Assembly (NCBI GenBank): GCA_017454905.1
Contig: JAFTCB010000062.1
Location: 124,001-188,000, forward strand
Source: Bacteroidales bacterium
GTDB lineage: Bacteria > Bacteroidota > Bacteroidia > Bacteroidales > UBA932
Direction of reading: 5' to 3'
DNA length: 64,000 bases
Position 1 is the first letter of the stretch. Each line of letters opens with the position of its first letter. The notes under the pieces are model-generated. The model had not been told where the DNA came from. It did not search any database and was given only the letters and a program-made list of their open reading frames with translations. A program made the position numbers and the translations under genes. Positions 18,019 through 33,077 of the stretch are shown piece by piece.

Positions 18019-21000
18019 TTACCAGCGGTGCGGATCGCCGCCGAGGACGTTCTCCACGGTGTATTCCGCCGCTTCGGCGGGGGTGAGGGCGCGCAGGCCC
18101 GTCCACTTGGCGCGGCCGTTCATGTCAGCACGGCGGCCGCGGTTGCCGTATTCATAGAGGTGCAGGTCCGGGCTCGTCTCGACATAGGGCTTGCCCCAGT
18201 TGGTCGGCCAGCCGAGCGGATCCATCTCGTCACAGAAATCGGAACGCAGGATCGCGACCTTGGGATAGTTGTGCCAGGGACGGCCGATGGCAATGCTGCG
18301 GCCGTCATCCCCGTCGCGGGGCGAACCGGAAGCGTAGGTGAAGCGGCAGCCGTTGAATACGAAACCGTAAGGCTGCAGGCGCGGAGTGGAGGGCGCCGTG
18401 ACCCAGCCGCCGCCCCAGGAGCGGATCTCACAGTTCTCGAACCAGGCGATGGCGCCGCCGTAGATGTAGTCGGTGCGGCCGACGACCAGGCAGTTCTCGA
18501 AATAGGCCCGCTTGCCGTCCTTCCAGAGATACATCGTATCCTGGTAGCCGGTGATATCGCAATCTGCCACATACAATTTGTCTCCCAGCAGGGCGAGCGC
18601 CTGCGCCTGGGCCACGGGACCTGCCGTATTGGCCAGGGTCAGGTGCTCGATGCGGCAGTTGTCGCCCACCACCGTCAGGGTGGCGGAAGTCTTGAGCAGG
18701 ACGGGATCGGAACGCATCCACTTGCGGGCCGACTCCTGCGGGAGGCGCGCCCCGGCGTAGATGTCCGGACCGTCGTACATGTGGTAACTCACCACGGTGC
18801 CCTTGCGGCTCTCGCCGCGCAGGGTGATGTTCCGTTTGCTCTCCGGGATGAGGAGTTTCTCCTGGTCATAGACGCCGTCCTTGATCAGGATCACCCAGCG
18901 GCCCTCCGCGAAATCAGGAGCGGCGTTGACGGCCGCCTGGATGGACGTGTAGTCGCCGCTGCCGTCGGCCGCCACGACGGCGTCCGCACGGTCTGCAGCC
19001 GCTGCATCGCAACGCACCGTGACTATCTGGCCCGGCACCGTCTCGATGTCGTACTCAAACGCTTCGGGAGCCACATAGCCGCGCACCGGCGCCTTCTCGC
19101 TGACCAGCGGGCGGGCTATCTCCTGGGAGCCGAAGAGCGGATTGGGATTGGTACCGGAAGCCGCTTTCAGGCCTTCGCCCGACAGGGCATCATAGGAACG
19201 CAGGCGGAGGTTGCCGCCAATGGTGGAACGCAAACGGGCCTCAACGATGTGGCCGTCCTTCCAGACCAGTTTCTCCAGGACGAAGCCGCCGCGGGCACGC
19301 AGGCCTTCCACGGAGCCGTCCGCGAGCGCATCCGGCAGGGCCGGCAGCAGGTGCACGGCACCGTCATGGCTCTGGAGCAGCATCTCCGCGATGCCGGCCG
19401 TGCAGCCGAAGTTGCCGTCGATCTGGAACGGCGGATGGGCGTCGAAGAGGTTGGGATAGGTGCCGCCCGACTGGCCGTACTGGATGGCGGGATTGACCAG
19501 GGAGAGCTGGTCCTTGATCAGCTTGAAGGCATGGTTGCCGTCCAGCATGCGGGCCCAGAGGCAGACCTTCCAGCCCATCGACCAGCCCGTAGAGGCGTCG
19601 TTGCGCTGGATCAGGGTGTTGCGCACGGCTTCGGTGAGCACCGGCGTACGGTACGGGGAGATCTGGTAGCCCGGGTAGAAGCCCCAGAGGTGCGAGACGT
19701 GGCGGTGATGGTCATTGGGGTTGTCCCAGTCTTCCCACCACTCCTGCAGTTGACCGTGCTGTCCGACCTGCATCGGCGGCAGGCGGCGGCGCATCGCATC
19801 CAGCGTGTCTGCGAAAGCCGCATCCTCCCCGAGGATCGCCGCGGCGCGCGCCGTGTTGGTGAAGAGATCGGTCACCAGCTGGTTGTCCATCGTGATGGCT
19901 GGGAAAATATTGGATGTGCGGCCTGCCGGACGGTTCTCCGGAGAGTCCGAAGGCACGACGACCAGGTAGCCGGTATGGGGATCCTCGACGAGGAAGTCGA
20001 CGAAGAACTCGGCCGCCCCCTTCATCAGCGGATATGCCTCTGCGAGATATTTCTCATCGCCGTTGTAGAGATAGCGGTCCCAGAGGTGCTGGCACAGCCA
20101 GGCGCCGCCCATCGGCCAGAGGCCGCAATAGGCATAGTCCAGCGCACCGGTGATGCGCCAGAGGTCGGAATTGTGGTGCAGCACCCAGCCCCGGCAGCCG
20201 TACATGTTCCGGGCGGTGCGGGCACCGCTCTCGGAGAAGTCGCGGATGATGTCCAGCAGCGGTTCGTGCAGTTCCGGCAGGTTCGTCAGCTCCGCAGGCC
20301 AGTAGTTCATCTCCAGGTTGATGTTGGTGGTATAGTTGCCGCACCAGGGAGCCTTGATGCGCTGGTTCCAGATGCCCTGCAGGTTGGCAGGCTGGCTGCC
20401 GGGCTGCGAACAGCTGATCAGCAGATAGCGGCCGTACTGGAAGTAGGTCGCCACCAGCGGCGCGTCCTCCGTCCACTGGAAGGCCAGGATGCGGTAATTG
20501 ACCGGGCGATCCTGGTAGTGGGACGCTCCCAGATCCAGTTTCACGCGGTCGAACTGCTTCTTGTAGGCAGCCACGTGCGCGGCGAGCGCCTTGTCATAAG
20601 GCTTGGATGCGTTCTTCAGGTAGGCGGCGCTGCGTGCGAGCGGATCCCCGGACACATCCTTATAGTTCACGAAATTGGTAGCCATCGCGATATGCAGCAG
20701 CACCTCCGTGGCACCCTCCACGCGCAGGGATTCGCCGGCGGCGGTCACTTTGCCGCCCTTGGCGGTGACTTTCGTATCATCGACATAGCGGATCGCACCC
20801 GGAATGCCGCCCTTGTCGTCGCCCTTGCCCTCCAGGCGAAGAATGTTGCCGCCCGGCGTACTGACGCGGGTATCCTGCATCGGTGTCTCATAGAAGAGCT
20901 CGCAGGAGATCGCCTTGGGCTTGGAAGCCGTGATGCGGACGATGATGAGCTGGTCGGTGAACGAGGCGAAAGCCTCCTCCACATACTCCACGCCCCCGAC

Positions 21001-21468
21001 CTTGTAGCTGGTGCGCACGACGGCCCGGTCGATGTCGAGTTCGCGGCGGTAATCCGTCACTTCCCCTTCGCGGCCCGGAAACTTGATTTTCAAGGATCCG
21101 GCCGTCTGGTAGGACATCTCCTCGCCGACCGGCGAAAGGAAATTCTCGTCTCCCAGTTTCTGGGCTTCATCATACTGGCCGGAGAAGACCAGGTCCCGCA
21201 TTTTCTGGAGATTCTGCAGGCCCTTCGGATTCCAGTTCTCGTAAGGACCTCCCGTGGAGATGGTCTCCTCGTTGAGCTGGATCTCTTCGACTTCGGTGCC
21301 GCCGTAGATCATGGCACCGATACGGCCGTTGCCGACCGGCCAGGCCTCTTCCCAATAGGCAGCCGGCTTGTCGAACCAGATGACGTTTTTCGGACTTGGC
21401 GCTTGCGCATACAGGCAGGTCAACGCCGCAGCAAACGCACCAAACAGAGTCAGGATTTTCTTCATATC
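18019..21468 (-). CDS. GH95 glycosidase fused to CE8 pectin methylesterase
   Basis: 1149 residues from the ATG at 21468 (signal peptide ending CLYAQ). Residues about 27-815 are a GH95 domain (alpha-L-fucosidase / alpha-L-galactosidase): [14 protein letters not shown], the probable acid Glu575 in [22 protein letters not shown] and Asp683 in PFQIDGNFG. Residues about 828-1149 are a right-handed beta-helix pectinesterase with [18 protein letters not shown] (normally DFIFG) and the Arg of IGRPW. GH95 removes terminal L-Fuc or L-Gal, CE8 removes methyl esters from galacturonate; both bonds occur together in rhamnogalacturonan II. It has its own promoter and a terminator. The GH95 substrate is not determined. 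Confidence 0.9.
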
Positions 21469-21487
21469 GCAATAGATTATTGGCGAT

Positions 21488-21520
21488 ATAAAGATACTCA
21501 CAATCTTGCTTATCGGCAAA
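21488..21520 (-). promoter_or_regulatory. Promoter for GH95-CE8
   Basis: On the minus strand TTTG (21520-21517) and TATCTTTAT (21496-21488) are 20 nt apart, close to the -33/-7 arrangement of Bacteroidetes promoters. The -7 element ends 19 nt before the ATG at 21468. The last positions deviate from the G of TAnnTTTG. Confidence 0.5.
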
Positions 21521-21562
21521 CCCCACCCGAAAAAGCGTCCAACACGGTCCAAAAAACAATAA

Positions 21563-22675
21563 TCATTTTTCTGGATAGACGATCACCCGTATCCGGTTAT
21601 CATCTGAATCCTCCGGAGAGAATGCCTGCATGATTCTGTCTCCGGCCGAAAAACTGTAGTATATGATATCTTTCTCTCCGACTTTGAACACATCCGCAAG
21701 CCTTCGGTCGCCAGATGCCTTTCCGGAAAAAGCCTCGCCAGTCTCTTTATTGTAGAACAGAAGTATTCGCTCGTCTTTACGGAAATAGATCAAGGCCCCC
21801 AACCAATGATCTGTCTCAAAATACTGTGAGACACTGTAATATACAGACTCTTCGAAAGGCTTTTCCATCGCCCGGACTGAGGCGGGCCATTCGACATCAT
21901 ACTTGAACTGATAAGGAACCGTCAACACCCCTTCAGATGAATAATGATAGATTTCATTTTTATCCTGTTCACCCCGAAGAGTCAAGGTTCCGTCGCTCAA
22001 ACGATGGAAATTCGTATAAGGAATATATGATTTGACATGCCTGAAATCATCGTCCAAAGGTGCAAGTACCCGGGCAATGGTTCCGTCCCTGTCTACATCG
22101 ATCAGGCCGGTCGGATTGGTCGGCACTGCAGGATTGCCAAATGAAATATAGACCAAATATGACCCGTCTTCCTTTACTGCGAAATCATTGAAAATACCGA
22201 CACCATCTTCCAGCACTATCTGGCGAAGGTATTCGCCGGATTCGGAATATACTACAATCCTGCGGGTCGCAATATCGTAAACGCTGATCTGTCCGTTGGA
22301 CGGATTCACATCAAAACACTCCATCTTGACCCATTCATTTTCCGCACGTCCCTTGCGGGAAAGATTTAGTAAAACCTGTCCGGCATCATCGAATACCAGA
22401 ATCGATTGTCTCCTGAAATCTGTCAGATAATAGCGGCCACAAACATATTTTATCGAATAGACGTATGAAATCGGAAAACCCGGATCCACATAAAAGACCC
22501 GGGGAGGGTCCACGATATCATATAGCGATATCCCTGCCTCCCTGTCCGGCCCCTTCAGTTCCACTGGTATCTCCTGCATGTTTATTTCCTTGTCAACATG
22601 TCTTCCGGATTGGCATGCTATAGAAAAAAATGACAAAAGAAACAACCAGACGATATCTTTCAGTCTTTCTTGCAT
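21563..22675 (-). CDS. 6-bladed beta-propeller lipoprotein (copy 1)
   Basis: 370 residues. A signal peptide with lipobox FSIAC (Cys21) leads into repeated four-stranded units with the spacing of the 6-bladed beta-propeller family common in Bacteroidetes (often listed as DUF5128). Characteristic blocks: [71 protein letters not shown] and [14 protein letters not shown]. It is clearly a paralogue of the propeller at 22956-24095. The ATG lies inside the last codons of the upstream cysteine-rich peptide gene (16-nt overlap), so translation is coupled. The likely place is the cell envelope; ligand and activity are unknown, and binding or processing of the peptide is an inference. Confidence 0.82.
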
Positions 22676-22908
22676 AAGTCATCCTCTTCTGAAATAGCAC
22701 ACATTGTATACTGTTGCTCCCGGCAACACAAAATCGTTTTATAGACTGGTTCCCGGTCTTCTCCGAGAAAGATCACTTCTATTTCTACGGGGCGCATGCC
22801 TTTCCCGCTTTCCCAGGTCTGGGCCTTGGCGTAGGAAGTCGTAAACAACAAGGCAGACAACGCGATGGAAAGAAAGAAAACAAAAAGAGCAGCGATTTTC
22901 TTAATCAC
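22660..22908 (-). CDS. Small exported cysteine-rich peptide (copy 1)
   Basis: 82 residues. An N-terminal membrane/signal segment of about 28 residues ends SYAKAQ. The mature part of about 52 residues begins TWESGKGM and holds all four cysteines (61, 62, 70, 79) in the pattern CC-x7-C-x8-C, written CCREQQYTMC then EEDDLC. The paralogue at 24080 has exactly the same spacing and the same W-x4-GM, CCR-x-Q, TMC and DLC residues. It recalls the NVEALA peptides found next to beta-propeller lipoproteins in Bacteroides but has no NVEALA motif. Two disulfides, or a metal site, could form. Function unknown; signal, cargo or toxin are all open. Confidence 0.75.
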   Translation of the reverse strand: MIKKIAALFVFFLSIALSALLFTTSYAKAQTWESGKGMRPVEIEVIFLGEDREPVYKTILCCREQQYTMCAISEEDDLCKKD

Positions 22909-22955
22909 GTTATAATTGTTGAATTATGAGTTTTATCATTCATGTCGGCTAACGA

Positions 22956-24095
22956 TCATTCCGGGAGTCCCTTCTCCATATATACCTTTACATAAATCTT
23001 GTTATCTGCGGCATCCTCTTTATAAGCGGAAGGATTATCCGGGAACATCAGACGATCCCCCGCAGAGAACTGATAATAAGGCAGATCTCCCTTTTCGTAC
23101 GGAAGAACATCCTGGAAGGTGATTTTCCCTTTTTCAGTTTTCCCGGTATAGCACTCCCCCGTCTCTTTGTTATAATAAACCAGCACAGAATGCTTTTCCT
23201 GATACCTTACAAACATTCCCAACCAATGATCAGTTTCGAAATACTGCACAATATCATAGTAATCAGGTTCCTCAAATGGTTCGGTCATTTTCCGCATCGC
23301 CTCAGACCAGGTCACATCATAGGCAATCTGGTAAGGAATGGAGAGCACGCCGGCGCGGTCGATATGGTAAATCTCGTTTTTGTCCTGCTGTCCGTGCACG
23401 GTCAGCGTACCGTCGCTGAGCCGATGGAAATTCACGTAGGGCATATAATTCAAAATAAGTTGAAAATCATCGTCCAACGAGGCCATGACCCTGGACAAAT
23501 TGCCGTTCCGGTCCAATTCAATCAATCCGCGCGGATTGCTGCTGCCCGGAGTTCCGTGGGAAACATAAATCAAATATGAACCGTCCTCCCGAACCGCGAA
23601 ATCCTGGAAAACCCTCACGCCTTTGGCAAGGTCAAACGACCTTGCATACTGGCCGTCTTCGGAATAGACGACCATCCTTCGACGATCAATATCATAGATG
23701 CTGATCTCACCATTTGCCGGATTGACATCAAAACACTCCATGGACACATACTCGTACTCCGCCCGCCCCCTGCGGGACAGATTCAGAAGGATCCGGCCAT
23801 CATCATCAAAAACAAGAATGTTCCGGCGCCGAGAATCCGTCATATAATACCTGCCCCGGACATATTTGAGCTGATAAATCTGTGTCATCGGTTGCGGCGG
23901 ATCCACAACAATCGTCTGCGGATGCTCGACGATGTCATACAAAGAGATTCCGGTCACCCTGCCGGGGCCTTTTAGCTGGACAGGAATTCCAATAGTCTCG
24001 GAATCCGCGCTATCTACCCTTCTATCGCAAGAACCTGCCACAAGCACAAAGGCCACTAGAAGCAAAAAAAACTCTATTCTCATTGGCCCGGACAT
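22956..24095 (-). CDS. 6-bladed beta-propeller lipoprotein (copy 2)
   Basis: 379 residues from the ATG at 24095, the position equivalent to the start of copy 1; an ATG at 24083 (overlapping the peptide stop as ATGA) gives a shorter signal peptide and is about equally likely. The lipobox is VAGSC. The propeller blades match copy 1 nearly block for block ([83 protein letters not shown]), so the two arose by duplication. The start lies within the peptide-2 gene. A 47-nt gap separates it from the next peptide gene. Activity unknown. Confidence 0.82.
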   Translation of the reverse strand: MSGPMRIEFFLLLVAFVLVAGSCDRRVDSADSETIGIPVQLKGPGRVTGISLYDIVEHPQTIVVDPPQPMTQIYQLKYVRGRYYMTDSRRRNILVFDDDGRILLNLSRRGRAEYEYVSMECFDVNPANGEISIYDIDRRRMVVYSEDGQYARSFDLAKGVRVFQDFAVREDGSYLIYVSHGTPGSSNPRGLIELDRNGNLSRVMASLDDDFQLILNYMPYVNFHRLSDGTLTVHGQQDKNEIYHIDRAGVLSIPYQIAYDVTWSEAMRKMTEPFEEPDYYDIVQYFETDHWLGMFVRYQEKHSVLVYYNKETGECYTGKTEKGKITFQDVLPYEKGDLPYYQFSAGDRLMFPDNPSAYKEDAADNKIYVKVYMEKGLPE

Positions 24096-24334
24096 AAATC
24101 ATTCTGCATAGCAAGATTGCACATAGTATCATCTTGCGGCCTGCAACAACGGATAAATCCGGTCATCTCTTCTCCTTCGTCCATCACCTCAGGATCACCA
24201 ATTACATAAGTTATCTTTACTTCCTGCATTCCGGTATTCTCTTTCCAATCCGCACGAGCCGTCGTTTTGGAAAAACAAAGAAGTAACATAACGGCAAGAA
24301 CAGCTGATAAAGCAATGATAATTGTTTTTTTCAT
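24080..24334 (-). CDS. Small exported cysteine-rich peptide (copy 2)
   Basis: 84 residues. A hydrophobic signal segment (about residues 1-28, ending TTARA) precedes a mature part starting DWKENTGM. Four cysteines at 63, 64, 72 and 81 give CC-x7-C-x8-C, identical in spacing to copy 1, within CCRPQDDTMC and NDLC. A fifth cysteine at position 20 lies in the signal segment. Between the conserved W-x4-GM and the cysteine block, length and sequence vary, as in families of processed peptides. It overlaps the following propeller gene and lies 20 nt after the CxxC lipoprotein gene. No function can be assigned. Confidence 0.75.
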   Translation of the reverse strand: MKKTIIIALSAVLAVMLLLCFSKTTARADWKENTGMQEVKITYVIGDPEVMDEGEEMTGFIRCCRPQDDTMCNLAMQNDLCPGQ

Positions 24335-24354: not shown

Positions 24355-24909
24355 TCAGTTTGCAAAACTTCCAGAAATTTTACGTCGGATGTAAGAATAA
24401 GCATGTAGGTCATTGCGCAAGTCACCGACGAACAGGACCGTTCCTTTTTGATCAGTCAATATATCCCCGGAACCAGTCCTGGTCGAAAGGCCGTTTTCCG
24501 AAGCAAAGACTCCCTCCCGATCAAGGAATACCGGCCGGCTGAAATATCCTTCGTCAAGCGTCTCAGCCAATATCCCGGTCGTGTACTCTTTCCGAGGCTC
24601 CAAGAGAAAATAATACTTAATTTTATCCTCCCCCAAATGAGAGATCAACTCATCCCACAAGTAGTACTGTTTTAACAAACAGGTGCTGCATGATGCCGGG
24701 CCGTCAAAATGAATCAATCGGAAAGGCTTTGCCTCATCTTCCGAGAATGGGAATCCCTTGTCGAGAATCTCTCCCTGACGGATAGCATCAAAAGAACCGA
24801 ACAAACTGAAATCAATTTGTTTAGATTCAATCTGAACATCCTGTCTGCAACAACATAGCAGACAACAGATGAAAAACAATGCGGTCACTCTTGTTATCAT
24901 CCCCGCCAT
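24355..24909 (-). CDS. Thioredoxin-like lipoprotein with CSTC motif
   Basis: 184 residues from the ATG at 24909; GTG at 24915 and ATG at 24900 are alternatives. The N-terminus is hydrophobic and cysteine-rich (FFICCLLCCC), with a lipobox-like site. The body has the order expected of a thioredoxin-like fold: a strand IHFDGPAS, an active-site-like CSTC (CxxC) at the start of a helix, a strand (KYYFLLEP), RPVFLDREGVF, and a strand pair LTDQKGTVLFVGDL, where TlpA/AhpC proteins carry their second half. It probably acts as a thiol-disulfide protein in the envelope. Its position directly before the cysteine-rich peptide genes suggests those peptides as substrates, an inference. Confidence 0.65.
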   Translation of the reverse strand: MAGMITRVTALFFICCLLCCCRQDVQIESKQIDFSLFGSFDAIRQGEILDKGFPFSEDEAKPFRLIHFDGPASCSTCLLKQYYLWDELISHLGEDKIKYYFLLEPRKEYTTGILAETLDEGYFSRPVFLDREGVFASENGLSTRTGSGDILTDQKGTVLFVGDLRNDLHAYSYIRRKISGSFAN

Positions 24910-24915
24910 CCTCAC

Positions 24916-25317
24916 TCATTCTATCTCAAAACTGCCGAAATATACCCGTCCGTCAGATAAAGTGAATATTATCTCGTAGGTACCTACATCCCCTGAGATC
25001 AAAAATGGATGGACTCCCTGGGTGGCATTCACCGTAGCCTGCGAGTATGCGCCAGTGGTCAAGTTCTCTATCTCAACCGAGATCGAGCCTAAATCAAAAG
25101 CAATACTCACAAGAACACAAGAAAGAGACGGGTAATAAGCCGCCTCAATGGGAATCGTCCCGGGCGCACGAATAATAGGACTACCACCATAGTTCTCATC
25201 GTTAATAATAATCGGGATGGTGTCTTCGCCATCTGCATAACAATAAATTCCAGTGAGGCTGGTAAGCAACCCCGCAAGACACATCATAGTAATGATGAAT
25301 AGGCTTTTCTTTTTCAT
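24916..25317 (-). CDS. Secreted DUF3244-like protein
   Basis: 133 residues. A signal peptide of about 28 residues (ending CYADG) is followed by a single small beta-sandwich: IPIEAAYYPSLSCVLVSIAF, then VEIENLTTGAYSQATVNATQ, and GTYEIIFTLSDGRVYFGSFE at the end. This strand order and the closing G-x-Y-x-I...G-x-F pattern resemble the DUF3244 domain found in Bacteroidales exported proteins. It is the first gene of the peptide/propeller operon and starts 23 nt after a perfect -7 element. No enzymatic residues are seen. Confidence 0.6.
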   Translation of the reverse strand: MKKKSLFIITMMCLAGLLTSLTGIYCYADGEDTIPIIINDENYGGSPIIRAPGTIPIEAAYYPSLSCVLVSIAFDLGSISVEIENLTTGAYSQATVNATQGVHPFLISGDVGTYEIIFTLSDGRVYFGSFEIE

Positions 25318-25560: not shown

Positions 25561-27231
25561 TTACCTACGAATATCAAACAGAGAGTCGTAGTCCGCATCG
25601 AGTAATGACCCTATTTGTTCTTTTAAGCGATGCTTCTTCACTCGCACATTGTTGGGGGTGATTCCAAACTTGGCGGCAACCACATCCGAGGGAAGATCAA
25701 GCAAGCAGCAGCACAAAAACAACTGTTCTTGTGGCTTATTCTGCATGTTCAGTTTCTGTAACAAAGGAATAATTGCCCCATCGAGTTCGCGATCCAAGCG
25801 CAGAACCAATTTCTCTCCTGAATCATCTATATCATAGACTTGTGACAATTCTTCCTTGATAGCTGCCATATCAGCATCTTTTGTAAACCATGCGGGCATT
25901 CCTCGGTGGTCCAGACGCCAAATGGCAGTCCGTAACCGACCAGCCTGTTTAAAACGGGATATACGCTCTCGTCTAGCGACGTCCCGGAAATGACTCAATT
26001 GTTTCTTAAGTTGCGCGGATTCAGCCTCCTGTTCCGCTGCTTCTTTCTCTAATGCAGAGCATATGCCCCAAACCCGGGTTCTTTCCTCATCAATCTTTTT
26101 TTTCCTAAGAAAAACTAGCACTAGTACTAATGACAATAGGAGTAAAATAATGAAAAGTATCGCGATATTGATCCGATAATGCAATTGCTTCTGCCTGGCT
26201 GCCTGATTATAAAAACTAGAAATAGCGTCCGTCACAGAGTCAGACAGGGCACGCTGAATCTCAGCATCTTCCGAAACGCGCGCTTGAGATAATGTTTCGT
26301 AGGCGGTTTTATAATCCCCATTGGCCAGCGCATATCGACTTTTCCAAATTGCTACATCCATAGGAGAGGACTCAAAATATTGCTCTAATTGCTTCAACAG
26401 GTCCCTTGCTTCTTGATGCCTTCCAGAAAGCGCCAGCGCATATACATAGGCCCCCGCGTCCTGCAAAGATAGCCGCTGTCCTAACTCTTTTTGTTTTCTA
26501 TCCAGAAGTGCTATAGCCTCTTCAGGTTCAGGCTCAGGCTGCAAAACTTTCATTCGGGCATAATTGGAAAGAAAGATGGACTGTGCATAGGGATTGGAAG
26601 ACGAAGACGCTATACCTTTCTGAAACAGCGAATCGGCGTGCTCCCATTCTCGCAAAGTAAAGCAGGATATGGCCAACTGTCCCAACGCAATATCCTGCAT
26701 CGGGTCATTGATGGCACAGAACTCGGATAAGCCCTTCTCTGTATATTCTTTCTCCTTCTCTATGTTGTGAACAGAATTATAAATAGAAGCTTCGGCCATA
26801 TACAGAACCCCAAGAGCATGCTTGTCTGTCACAACCCCCGCATAATCTTCTGCACGAGCATAGAACACCGCTGCGGCGTCATAGTCTTTACAATCTTGTG
26901 CGATGCGCCCCTGATAGTGAAGTGTCTTCATCTTCTCGTCGGCCGAGCCATGATGCTCGTACCACGACACCGCAGGATCTAGTATTTCTGTTGCCGTGAT
27001 GTCCTTGTAGCACTTGTCCAAAGCCATCGTCCGAAGCAGCGAATACCGCGCCCGCAGGGCACGGGTCGTCAAGGCCGTGGAGTCTACGCCTTCCAGCACC
27101 GCCAAGGCGCTGTCCGGACGCTCATTGATATAAGATTCCACATCATCCAGAACTGCCGTGACGCGCAAACTTTTGGACGGGCCGCAAGCCGAAACAAGCA
27201 CAAGCGCTACAAAGGCGAGAATCCGAATCAT
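25561..27231 (-). CDS. TPR - membrane helix - coiled coil - HTH regulator lipoprotein
   Basis: 556 residues. A lipobox-like start (VLVSAC) precedes tetratricopeptide-type helical repeats (about 25-320), a membrane helix near 340 (INIAILFIILLLLSLVLVLV), a coiled coil (about 365-410) and a C-terminal helix-turn-helix resembling sigma-70 region 4/LuxR (KPQEQLFLCCCLLDLPSDVV, then NNVRVKKHRLKEQIGSLL). This matches the Bacteroidetes TPR regulators that put a sensor in the periplasm and an HTH in the cytoplasm. Its ATG overlaps the GH2 stop (ATGA), so it is read with the pectinase operon, while it stands directly upstream of the peptide/propeller operon, its plausible target. The first ~85 codons are GC-rich, the rest AT-rich. 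Confidence 0.78.
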   Translation of the reverse strand: MIRILAFVALVLVSACGPSKSLRVTAVLDDVESYINERPDSALAVLEGVDSTALTTRALRARYSLLRTMALDKCYKDITATEILDPAVSWYEHHGSADEKMKTLHYQGRIAQDCKDYDAAAVFYARAEDYAGVVTDKHALGVLYMAEASIYNSVHNIEKEKEYTEKGLSEFCAINDPMQDIALGQLAISCFTLREWEHADSLFQKGIASSSSNPYAQSIFLSNYARMKVLQPEPEPEEAIALLDRKQKELGQRLSLQDAGAYVYALALSGRHQEARDLLKQLEQYFESSPMDVAIWKSRYALANGDYKTAYETLSQARVSEDAEIQRALSDSVTDAISSFYNQAARQKQLHYRINIAILFIILLLLSLVLVLVFLRKKKIDEERTRVWGICSALEKEAAEQEAESAQLKKQLSHFRDVARRERISRFKQAGRLRTAIWRLDHRGMPAWFTKDADMAAIKEELSQVYDIDDSGEKLVLRLDRELDGAIIPLLQKLNMQNKPQEQLFLCCCLLDLPSDVVAAKFGITPNNVRVKKHRLKEQIGSLLDADYDSLFDIRR

Positions 27232-30296: not shown

Positions 30297-33077
30297 CTAT
30301 TTTTCACCAGCCATCACGCCCTCATAGGTGTACCGGGCGGCTTCGGCGGGGGTCAGCCGGTGGGACCACCCCGCGCGGGCAGCGGTGCCGGCTCCGGGGC
30401 CGTAGCAATCATATTCGGCGTAGTACGCCGTCTGTTCGTTGCTCTCCTTTCCCCAGTTGTGCCAGCCCTCCGGGCGGATGTGGGAGTCGAGTTCGCAGTG
30501 CAGGAAAACGGTCTGCGCGTAGGGCCGCCAGGGACGTCCCAGATAGACTCTCTCCACGCCAGGGTCGGCCGTCAGGCGGCAGTCCTTGAAGACGTAGCCG
30601 AAGGGCTGGCCCTCCAGCGAAGAAGCCGCCGTGACATAGGAGTCGGCCTTGGAGCGGATCTCGCAGCGCTCAAACCAGGCGATGCTGCTGCCGAAGATAA
30701 AGTCGGTCGTGCCCTCGATATAGCAGTCGAAAAAGGCATTGCGGATGTGCTGGCCGTCCTCGGCGTACTTGCCGAAAGTATAGAGGGTATCCTGGTTGCC
30801 CAGGAACCGGCAGCGGCGGGCGGTGAAGCGGTCACCGTTGGTAAAGAGCGCGACCGCCTGGCCCACACGGCCGGCGTCGTTCTCGACCGTCAGGTCCTCA
30901 AGCGTGACGTCCTCCGCATGCACGAACATCGTGGCGCTCCCGGAAGTACCCACGGTCCCCGGGGCATTGCCCCAGGGCAGCGAGGCATAATTCCCATATA
31001 CAATCACGGTATTCGCCGCATCCAGTCCCTTCAGGAGCAGGTGACGCTTGTTCCAGGGGATCACGACGCGCTCGCGGTACACACCGGGCTTGATCAGGAT
31101 CGTGTATTGCCCGTCATGCAGGGCGTCCGGTGCCGCGTCGATGGCAGCCTGGACGGTCAGGTAATCGCCGCGGCCCTGCTGGTCCACGACGGCGTCCCAG
31201 TGCACCAGGTGCTTCGCGATTTCGGGGAGTTTGACGCGGATGGAGTCGCAGACGATGTCGCAGTTGCGACGGGCGCCGAGCGGCGTGGAGTGGGTGTTGT
31301 CCTGGATGCCCTGGGGCTTGGCCGGGCACACGCCCGGCTCGATCCACATGAAATAGGGGCGCGAGGCGAGGTCACCCGCCTGCTTGAGCCACTGAATCGT
31401 GGCCTGCTCCATGTCGATCAGGGGCACGCCCCGCTCGGCCGCCACGGCGCGCATCGAGGCCGGGTACTCCCCGTGCGTGGTCTCGTCGAGGACATTGTTG
31501 TAGAAATGGCGGCGCGCCACCGGCGTGAGCAGCACCGGCGTGGCCCCCAGTTCGCGGGCCGTGTCGATGAAGAGGCGCAGGTAGTCCTGCCACTCGGTCC
31601 AGGCGGGCGCGTAGCCCTTGCCCTTGGGCTTCTGGTCGTTGTGGCCGAACTCGATGAAGAGGTAGTCGCCCGGGCGGATGTTCGCCTTGACGCGGTCCCA
31701 GATGCCCTCGGCGATGGCCGTCTTGCAGCTGCGGCCGTTCTTGGCGTAGTTGATCACCCGCACGCGCCCGTCGAGGAAATTCTCGAAGACCATGCCCCAG
31801 CCGCGTTCGGGATTGAGCCCGCTGATATCCTTGTCGGCCATGGTGCTGTCGCCCATCAGGTGGATGGTGAAATCGAAACTCTGCTCCGGGGCCTTCAGCG
31901 CCAGGGTCGGGCCGGCGCCCTTGCGCACAAGGGCCGGGACCTTGGATGCCGGCAGGGCCGTATAGGCGTAGGGCATCTCCACGGTGCCGCGGTCGGCGGG
32001 CGTGAATTTCTCCCGGAAAATGTTGCCCCGGAACTGCCAGGCGAGGGCATCGTCCGTGCCCTCGAAGATGTTGTTCACCCCCTTCTCGAAGTAATTGCCC
32101 TCGATCAGCACTTCGGATTGGATCCGGGCATTGATGGCAGGAGCGCCGTTGCCCGCGCAATCGTACAGGTTGTTGAGCAGGTGGACCTTGCCGAAGCGCA
32201 CCACCGGCATGCGCACCTCGCATCCCGCGCCCCAGATATTGCAGGCGAAGGTGATGTTGAGATTGTCCACGCCCTGGTCCGGCCGCTCACTGCTGCCGAT
32301 CAGGTTGGAGGCCTTGTGGTCGTAGGCCCTGTCGGTGTACTGGAAGACGCACCAGCTCACGGTGATGAAGTCCGAACGGGAGTTGATGTCGAAGTTGCCG
32401 TCCATCCCGTCGGTAAAGCTGCAATGGTCCACCCAGACATGCTTCGTGCCGTTCGAGAGGGTCAGCAGGTCCGCGCCGCCCACGTCGATGGGACCGGGCC
32501 CCACCAGCGCCAGGTTGCGGATGATAATGTTCTCGCAGGCGTTCAGGCTGAACAGGCCGGCGCTGCGGTAGACTTCCTTCGCATCGCCCGTGTGGTCGAT
32601 GATGGCCTGGCGGGTGTGCTGTTCGCGCTCTTCCGCCACCCGGACGCCGTTGGAGAGTTCTCCCCCGCCGCCTTGGTCGGACATCGCCTTCACCCCCGTG
32701 TCATCCAGGAGTTTGCGGAGTTCGGGCGTAACCTCGAACTGCGTGCGGATGCGGGCGCCGTTGACGCCCAGCAGCGTCTTGCCACGCAGGCCGCGGAAGG
32801 GCATCGAACTCGAAATGATGAAGTCGCCGCGGGCACCGTCGAACACGATCACGTCATAGTCCTTGACGGCTTTGATGACGTCCTCGCGCATGTCGAAGCC
32901 GTTGCTCTGCAGCACGATGGTCCGGGCGGGATCACCTCCGGTCAACACATAGCCGCTGCCTTCGGTCAGCGAAAAAGCGGTCGCCCAGCCGAAGGGCGCG
33001 TCGGGCAAAGGTTGTGCGGCTCCGGCCGCCGTCAGGCACAGCGCAGCCGCCGCGAAGCAGGAAAGGAATCTTCTCAT
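30297..33077 (-). CDS. Trimodular pectinase: PL1 pectate lyase - CE12 acetylesterase - CE8 methylesterase
   Basis: 926 residues with a signal peptide ending AGAA. Residues about 25-395 are a PL1 beta-helix (VWVDHCSFTDGMDGNFDI, TVSWCVFQYTD, CEVRMPVVRFGKVHLLNN). About 402-625 is an SGNH hydrolase of the rhamnogalacturonan acetylesterase type: GDST with Ser411, FIEFGHNDQK, and D593-x-x-H596 in DNTHSTPLG. About 627-920 is a CE8 pectinesterase with GNQDTLY, TDFIFGSS and YLGRPWRPY. One exported chain can thus remove acetyl groups, remove methyl esters and cut the unmasked galacturonan by beta-elimination. It sits 6 nt after PL10 and 27 nt before GH2 in the same operon. Confidence 0.92.
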   Translation of the reverse strand: MRRFLSCFAAAALCLTAAGAAQPLPDAPFGWATAFSLTEGSGYVLTGGDPARTIVLQSNGFDMREDVIKAVKDYDVIVFDGARGDFIISSSMPFRGLRGKTLLGVNGARIRTQFEVTPELRKLLDDTGVKAMSDQGGGGELSNGVRVAEEREQHTRQAIIDHTGDAKEVYRSAGLFSLNACENIIIRNLALVGPGPIDVGGADLLTLSNGTKHVWVDHCSFTDGMDGNFDINSRSDFITVSWCVFQYTDRAYDHKASNLIGSSERPDQGVDNLNITFACNIWGAGCEVRMPVVRFGKVHLLNNLYDCAGNGAPAINARIQSEVLIEGNYFEKGVNNIFEGTDDALAWQFRGNIFREKFTPADRGTVEMPYAYTALPASKVPALVRKGAGPTLALKAPEQSFDFTIHLMGDSTMADKDISGLNPERGWGMVFENFLDGRVRVINYAKNGRSCKTAIAEGIWDRVKANIRPGDYLFIEFGHNDQKPKGKGYAPAWTEWQDYLRLFIDTARELGATPVLLTPVARRHFYNNVLDETTHGEYPASMRAVAAERGVPLIDMEQATIQWLKQAGDLASRPYFMWIEPGVCPAKPQGIQDNTHSTPLGARRNCDIVCDSIRVKLPEIAKHLVHWDAVVDQQGRGDYLTVQAAIDAAPDALHDGQYTILIKPGVYRERVVIPWNKRHLLLKGLDAANTVIVYGNYASLPWGNAPGTVGTSGSATMFVHAEDVTLEDLTVENDAGRVGQAVALFTNGDRFTARRCRFLGNQDTLYTFGKYAEDGQHIRNAFFDCYIEGTTDFIFGSSIAWFERCEIRSKADSYVTAASSLEGQPFGYVFKDCRLTADPGVERVYLGRPWRPYAQTVFLHCELDSHIRPEGWHNWGKESNEQTAYYAEYDCYGPGAGTAARAGWSHRLTPAEAARYTYEGVMAGEK

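What the first reader, a model, noticed from the sequence alone, without database searches (positions are those of the whole stretch)
21563..24334. Tandem cassettes of exported cysteine-rich peptide plus 6-bladed beta-propeller lipoprotein
Two gene pairs lie head to tail. Each has a small signal-bearing peptide with exactly CC-x7-C-x8-C plus shared W-x4-GM, CCR-x-Q, TMC and DLC, followed by a propeller lipoprotein whose ATG lies inside the peptide's last codons (LC written TTATGC and TTATGT). The overlap geometry and cysteine spacing are preserved in both copies while the rest of the peptide diverges. This recalls NVEALA peptide/propeller neighbours in Bacteroides but lacks the NVEALA motif. 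It could be a secreted peptide system for signalling, competition or surface display, with the propeller as receptor, exporter accessory or maturation factor.
Basis: partly seen in the sequence, partly recalled or inferred. Interest (0 to 1): 0.85.

Follow-up and report, generated by a model that had tools for sequence, protein, structure and literature searches.

The report
Exported cysteine-rich peptides paired with propellers
Two small peptides that look exported and share a fixed cysteine pattern, each followed by its own six-bladed propeller lipoprotein, appear to be a far-diverged form of a gut-bacterial operon type that often also carries a membrane sensor, a thioredoxin-like protein and a signal peptidase, and whose job is unknown.

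Summary
Two head-to-tail pairs lie on the minus strand, each a peptide with a signal sequence and exactly CC-x7-C-x8-C, followed by a DUF5128 propeller lipoprotein. They end one apparent operon after a membrane TPR-HTH protein, an exported 133-aa protein and a CxxC thioredoxin-like lipoprotein. The pair occurs in two further genomes. Of the three next-closest propellers outside the family, two follow NVEALA-type peptides, one of these with exactly CC-x7-C-x8-C. A propeller tree places the window pairs with them, so the window is best read as an NVEALA-type system without the motif. The start/stop overlap is not conserved. In 20 held-out NVEALA loci against 19 control regions: propellers 18 against 2, thioredoxin-like proteins 12 against 1, ToxR-like membrane sensors 9 against 0, signal peptidase I 7 against 0. 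Best reading: an exported, disulfide-bonded peptide held or matured by its propeller and read by an adjacent membrane regulator. The placement rests mainly on the propellers (peptide sequences alone link weakly); the mechanism is inference. No paper containing NVEALA was found in the library searched. Verdict: new variant of a known kind of unknown function.

The parts
24080..24334 (-). peptide A: signal sequence ending in an AxA site (ARA|DW, inferred), mature part CC-x7-C-x8-C
   Evidence: no Pfam or NCBIfam match over a cut-off
22956..24095 (-). propeller A lipoprotein, DUF5128; alternative start 24083
   Evidence: PF17170 75.8 bits, E 4.6e-21; for the alternative start
22660..22908 (-). 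peptide B, GTG start, AxA site (AKA|QTW, inferred), mature part CC-x7-C-x8-C
21563..22675 (-). propeller B lipoprotein, DUF5128
   Evidence: PF17170 70.9 bits, E 1.4e-19
24355..24915 (-). thioredoxin-like lipoprotein with CSTC motif
   Evidence: no Pfam hit of its own; homologues beside peptide-propeller pairs, some joined to DUF1573
24916..25317 (-). 133-aa protein with an N-terminal hydrophobic segment, probably exported and in the same operon
   Evidence: no Pfam or NCBIfam hit
25561..27231 (-). probable transmembrane regulator: TPR-like N-terminal part, membrane segment at residues 350-380, C-terminal HTH
   Evidence: all matches below cut-off; BT3442_fam 67 bits against cut-off 940; hydrophobicity

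Best explanation
This is a motif-less, far-diverged branch of the NVEALA-type peptide/propeller operons of Bacteroidales. Shown by sequence: peptide, propeller and thioredoxin-like gene side by side; relatedness of these propellers to propellers that follow NVEALA peptides; recurrence in other genomes. Inferred: the peptides are exported by Sec and cut at an AxA site (NVEALA itself ends in such a site, ALA). The CxxC lipoprotein helps form or correct two disulfides. The propeller lipoprotein encoded right behind each peptide binds its own peptide at the envelope and stores, presents or matures it. The adjacent membrane-spanning regulator (TPR-HTH here; ToxR-like or kinase at many NVEALA loci) reads the periplasmic outcome and sets operon transcription. 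The likely output is peptide-based envelope or cell-cell signalling. Tandem cassettes give two parallel peptide-propeller channels that share one thioredoxin-like protein and one regulator.
For: Placement: in a tree of 73 propellers, window x2, L008, L009 and L109 (peptide with NLEALA and CC-x8-C-x8-C) form a starred clade (99/98); an 11-row starred clade (96/92) holds 9 of the 11 CC-type pairs. System: thioredoxin-like gene in 22 of 42 loci with a pair against 2 of 43 with propellers only; flank-matched at 2 kb 15 of 33 against 5 of 36, p 0.007. Held-out NVEALA loci against control regions: propeller 18 of 20 against 2 of 19, thioredoxin-like 12 of 20 against 1 of 19, ToxR-like sensor 9 of 20 against 0 of 19, signal peptidase I 7 of 20 against 0 of 19. 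In the first set sensors were found in 10 of 42 loci with a pair against 0 of 43; in 9 of the 10 they are divergent from the nearest peptide, 43-225 bp away in 8 and 760 bp in one.
Against: Peptide sequences alone link weakly: a profile of 7 outside CC peptides finds peptide A at E 0.17, L009 at 0.2 and L008 at 3.6 (the first two are its best untrained hits) and does not find peptide B at E up to 10; the reverse profile finds 1 of the 7 (L183, E 4.6), below chance hits. The window's regulator is not related to the ToxR-like or kinase sensors, and no homologue of it was found in the loci then fetched. No signal peptidase or Wzy_C protein of the L008 type was found in the window's genome, which is 82% complete (the tool warns that such an empty answer proves little). 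Peptide and propeller distances correlate over all 11 CC pairs (r 0.72) but not with one row per close family (r 0.13, p 0.25, n 8). In 15 NVEALA loci the mature peptide covaries with the sensor's periplasmic part beyond its DNA-binding part (partial r 0.39), but so does the leader (0.49), so this is not ligand-specific; mature peptide with propeller given the sensor is 0.18, p 0.12. No binding or expression data, and no structure was obtained.
Confidence: 0.4

Rival explanations
1. Antagonism: the peptide is a bacteriocin-like toxin and the propeller lipoprotein is its immunity protein, kept in matched tandem pairs.
For: Small disulfide-capable peptides that diverge faster than their propellers (A against B: mature parts 17 of 52 identical residues, propellers 204 of 369); tandem cognate-looking pairs; up to 23 NVEALA matches in one genome (G1012).
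Against: By automatic of 144 propellers have no such peptide before them and 7 of 42 NVEALA peptides have no propeller directly behind them. Membrane sensors and thioredoxin-like proteins are not parts that a toxin-immunity pair needs. Dedicated bacteriocin exporters were not searched for.
Confidence: 0.2
2. Envelope redox or stress module: the peptide is a sacrificial or sensing disulfide substrate, the thioredoxin-like protein the actor, and the propeller a scaffold; no message leaves the cell.
For: CxxC partner enriched near pairs; membrane regulators with periplasmic parts next door at many loci.
Against: Cysteine number and spacing vary widely between NVEALA peptides (list), more than I would expect for a general redox substrate.
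Confidence: 0.2
3. Unrelated pairing: the window peptides are an independent invention before a common propeller family, and the likeness to NVEALA peptides is convergence.
For: No Pfam match of the window peptides to NVEALA at E up to 1; weak profile link; other non-NVEALA cysteine-rich peptides also precede propellers (L148, L149, L159).
Against: Same position, same C-terminal cysteine pattern, and the nearest outside propeller (L109) follows an NLEALA-type peptide.
Confidence: 0.15

Closest known systems
NVEALA peptides (Pfam PF14055) before DUF5128 (PF17170) or TolB_like (PF15869) propellers in Bacteroidales
   Same: Peptide with signal sequence and cysteines directly before a 6-bladed propeller lipoprotein; thioredoxin-like CxxC protein nearby; tandem pairs; the same C-terminal cysteine spacing in L112 and a one-residue variant in L109
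   Different: No NVEALA motif and no Pfam match; shorter leader ending in an ordinary-looking AxA site (inferred); no ToxR-like or kinase sensor and no signal peptidase beside it; a TPR-HTH membrane protein instead
NHL-type six-bladed propellers of known structure (4raa putative exported protein; TRIM2/TRIM3/Brat NHL domains)
   Same: Sequence profile match of the propeller (4raa over profile positions 44-386, E 3.4e-24; TRIM2 E 2.3e-27)
   Different: 4raa bears no functional name in the listing; TRIM-NHL domains belong to animal proteins of the cell interior (recalled)
GG-leader peptide bacteriocins of Bacteroidales (recalled, not from a call)
   Same: Small exported peptides of gut Bacteroidales
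   Different: Those use double-glycine leaders and a peptidase-containing ABC exporter (recalled); here the leaders look like ordinary signal sequences

Membership tests
NVEALA protein (PF14055) | match to the Pfam model at its cut-off (27 bits) | tested here: not met
   no hit for either window peptide at E up to 1 nor for L008's at E up to 10; no NVEALA hit over cut-off in the window's genome, best 13.3 bits elsewhere
NVEALA protein (PF14055) | NVEALA-like motif before the mature part | tested here: not met
   no match in the four peptides to the patterns used; L008 and L009 do read NVEVEF, but inside the predicted mature part, which I count as chance
NVEALA-type peptide/propeller operon | cysteine-containing peptide with signal sequence directly before a 6-bladed propeller lipoprotein | tested here: met
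NVEALA-type peptide/propeller operon | propeller within a clade that accompanies NVEALA peptides | tested here: met
   starred clade with L109, then with L112, L025, L032, L106 and two rows without a peptide; L025's own peptide also lacks the motif
NVEALA-type peptide/propeller operon | thioredoxin-like CxxC lipoprotein nearby (frequent, not universal) | tested here: met
   window 24355-24915
NVEALA-type peptide/propeller operon | adjacent ToxR-like or kinase sensor (frequent, not universal) | tested here: not met
   the window has an unrelated TPR-HTH membrane protein
DUF5128 (PF17170) | match over the Pfam cut-off | tested here: met
   70.9 and 75.8 bits against 22.9
NVEALA-type peptide/propeller operon | export, disulfides and peptide-propeller binding | not testable with these tools

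The most novel reading that the evidence does not exclude
Bacteroidales carry a widespread, undescribed class of exported disulfide-peptide signalling systems (membrane sensor, peptide, propeller receptor or carrier, thioredoxin-like maturation factor, often a dedicated signal peptidase), of which the NVEALA motif marks only one leader type and the window shows a second, motif-less type.
Probability: 0.3. Interest if true: 0.85.

Novelty: new variant of a known kind. Interest (0 to 1): 0.6.

Why it matters
NVEALA peptides are common in one Bacteroidales family (55 of 123 genomes at E up to 1e-6), yet no paper containing the word was found in the open library. Showing that they come with membrane sensors, thioredoxin-like proteins and often a signal peptidase, and that motif-less relatives exist, turns a set of domain names into a testable system and extends it to peptides that annotation misses.

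Tried and rejected
Overlap as a conserved feature: rejected. Pectin link: the pairs sit among pectin-degrading genes, but the relatives L008 and L009 have other neighbours (signal peptidase, Wzy_C protein; an outer-membrane efflux protein beside L008), so the link is not conserved. Mobile origin: no relative in viral contigs or plasmids. Wzy_C proteins as part of the system: 7 of 42 loci with pairs and 4 of 43 without, not convincing. Peptide-propeller co-divergence and peptide-sensor co-divergence: not specific. Signal peptidase: 10 of 42 against 1 of 43 in the first set, modest when flanks are matched (7 of 33 against 1 of 36, p 0.024; 5 of 27 against 0 of 23, p 0.054; 4 of 11 against 0 of 15, p 0.022). 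Peptide profile against solved structures: one hit at E 0.24, taken as chance.

Rows dropped: 4 of 56 automatic peptide calls judged spurious by eye (L174, L175, L081 at 1377, L144), leaving 52; also the four of window, L008 and L009, leaving 48; L009; 67 of 88 propellers without a peptide (profile score under 200) left out of the tree. In one search, 42 sensors were found: 22 had no peptide or no propeller at the expected place, identical ones were merged to 18, and 3 near-copies went, leaving 15. In one search, 31 of 42 NVEALA peptides lay before a propeller; with the later propeller list it is 35 of 42, and 33 of 40 in loci fetched by NVEALA hits. In one search the sensor profile took in both ToxR-like proteins and kinases, five loci each.

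Full report
What is there. On the minus strand, in transcription order: a 556-aa probable membrane regulator (27231-25561), a 133-aa protein with an N-terminal hydrophobic segment (25317-24916), a thioredoxin-like lipoprotein with CSTC (24915-24355), peptide A (24334-24080), propeller A (24095-22956), peptide B (22908-22660) and propeller B (22675-21563). Both propellers are DUF5128. The peptides match nothing in Pfam or NCBIfam over a cut-off. Each has a hydrophobic signal ending in AxA (ARA|DW, AKA|QTW; AYA|DW in the relatives). That these are signal peptidase I sites, and that the genes are one operon, is inference.

Close relatives. One scan of the genome collection gave two contigs with one pair each: peptide with CC-x7-C-x8-C, propeller, thioredoxin-like gene (L008, RUG11407; L009, sheep reticulum RGIG6579). 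A peptide profile against 398 genomes of the family matched 6. The four peptides share the cysteines and the W, GM, CCR-x-Q and TMC positions. Propellers are 53-55% identical to propeller A. Mature peptides (A against B, A against L008, B against L008) have 17 to 22 identical residues of 51-52. L008 against L009: dN/dS 0.30 for the whole peptide and 0.14 for the propeller; the mature peptide alone has 4 nonsynonymous and 1 synonymous change, too few to judge.

Link to NVEALA peptides. Among 393 genomes of the order the propeller profile matched four at E up to 1e-15: the window's own, G504, G730 and G474. In G504 and G730 the gene before the propeller is an NVEALA-type peptide: NLEALA with CC-x8-C-x8-C, and NVEALA with exactly CC-x7-C-x8-C. 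G474 has none. In a tree of 73 propellers the window pair, L008, L009 and G504's (L109) form a starred clade (99/98). Adding G730, G081, G017, G470 and two rows without a peptide (G474, G115) gives a second starred clade (96/92) that holds 9 of 11 CC-type pairs; the other two (L157, L183) lie elsewhere. G115 has what looks to me like transposase sequence where the peptide would be. Seven of 48 outside peptides carry CC-x7-9-C-x6-8-C against 0.27 expected from shuffles (post hoc range). By sequence alone the peptide link is weak: peptide B is not found at all by the outside profile. I conclude that the window peptides descend from, or replaced, NVEALA-type peptides in the same slot.

Spread. 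The ten-row propeller profile matched 36 of 295 genomes of the order at E up to 1e-25 and 3 of 198 of the class at E up to 1e-30, all three from the order.

The wider system. In loci fetched by NVEALA hits, 33 of 40 NVEALA-type peptides lie directly before a propeller, of DUF5128 or TolB_like type where Pfam was run. Near pairs a thioredoxin-like protein, sometimes joined to DUF1573, is common: 22 of 42 loci against 2 of 43 loci with propellers only, and 15 of 33 against 5 of 36 with matched 2-kb flanks. A signal peptidase I is found in 10 of 42 against 1 of 43 (identity confirmed by Pfam or NCBIfam for four of them). Membrane sensors are found in 10 of 42 against 0 of 43: five ToxR-like with a winged helix and five histidine kinases, 9 of 10 divergent from the nearest peptide. 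The two kinds share a weakly similar periplasmic part: the ToxR-like N-terminal profile finds 3 of 5 kinases at E 1e-4 to 2e-3 among 4097 frames. In L087 and L088 the order is peptide, propeller, thioredoxin-like, signal peptidase.

Held-out test. Profiles from the first set were run on 20 NVEALA loci from 20 genomes not in that set, and on 19 control regions from 19 of the same genomes: propeller 18 against 2, thioredoxin-like 12 against 1, ToxR-like sensor 9 against 0, kinase type 1 against 0, signal peptidase 7 against 0. The genomes belong to the family of G501, and that family had contributed to the profiles. Eight of the 20 NVEALA loci were shorter than the controls, which works against the finding. 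L188 shows sensor, then peptide, propeller, thioredoxin-like, peptide, propeller, signal peptidase: two cassettes around one thioredoxin-like gene, close to the window's plan. A further 40 NVEALA stretches, without controls and partly from the same genomes or overlapping the first 20, gave propeller 36, thioredoxin-like 27, ToxR-like sensor 28, kinase type 0 and signal peptidase 11 of 40.

How it may work. The window's regulator has a signal-like N-terminus, TPR-like repeats (matches below cut-off), one strong membrane segment and a C-terminal HTH, so it could read a periplasmic state and act on DNA, as the unrelated sensors could elsewhere. From this I infer peptide export, oxidation, binding by the neighbouring propeller and feedback on the operon. 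None of these steps is shown. Tests for co-divergence gave no specific support. No structure was obtained; a solved relative, 4raa, matches the propeller profile nearly full length.

Literature. No paper in the library contains NVEALA. One iron-limitation study lists BT0662 (O-antigen ligase family) and BT0664 (6-bladed beta-propeller) in one table (PMC10434189, passages seen); the numbers beside them (0.132 and 0.353), if they are p-values, are not significant. BF3164 appears in a table of group-specific proteins as a putative lipoprotein (PMC1887533, passage seen). The listings showed no paper on the function of these pairs; no other paper was opened.

Noticed in passing
window 18019-21552 (-): One protein holds a GH95 catalytic domain and a C-terminal pectinesterase.
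   Followed up: partly
window 30297-33077 (-): One protein joins pectate lyase, GDSL lipase/acylhydrolase and pectinesterase domains; with GH2, Pec_lyase, AXE1, PcRGLX and GH127 genes this looks like a pectin-degrading island.
   Followed up: partly
L008 against L009: Identity steps from 86% (first 3.3 kb) to 96% (remaining 7.7 kb, which holds peptide, propeller and thioredoxin-like genes) between two genomes given different genus codes: recombination, transfer or binning error.
   Followed up: no
L148, L149, L159 (one genome, G611): Cysteine-rich peptides with signal sequences but without NVEALA, of other cysteine patterns, also precede propellers.
   Followed up: partly
L026 4640-4910: Transposase-like sequence lies where the peptide would be expected before the propeller (judged by eye).
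   Followed up: no
G1012: 23 NVEALA matches in one 2.5-Mb genome, 88% complete.
   Followed up: no
L008 4728-4982 and L009 4731-4982: Both peptides read NVEVEF after W-x4-GM, a partial likeness to NVEALA inside the predicted mature part.
   Followed up: no
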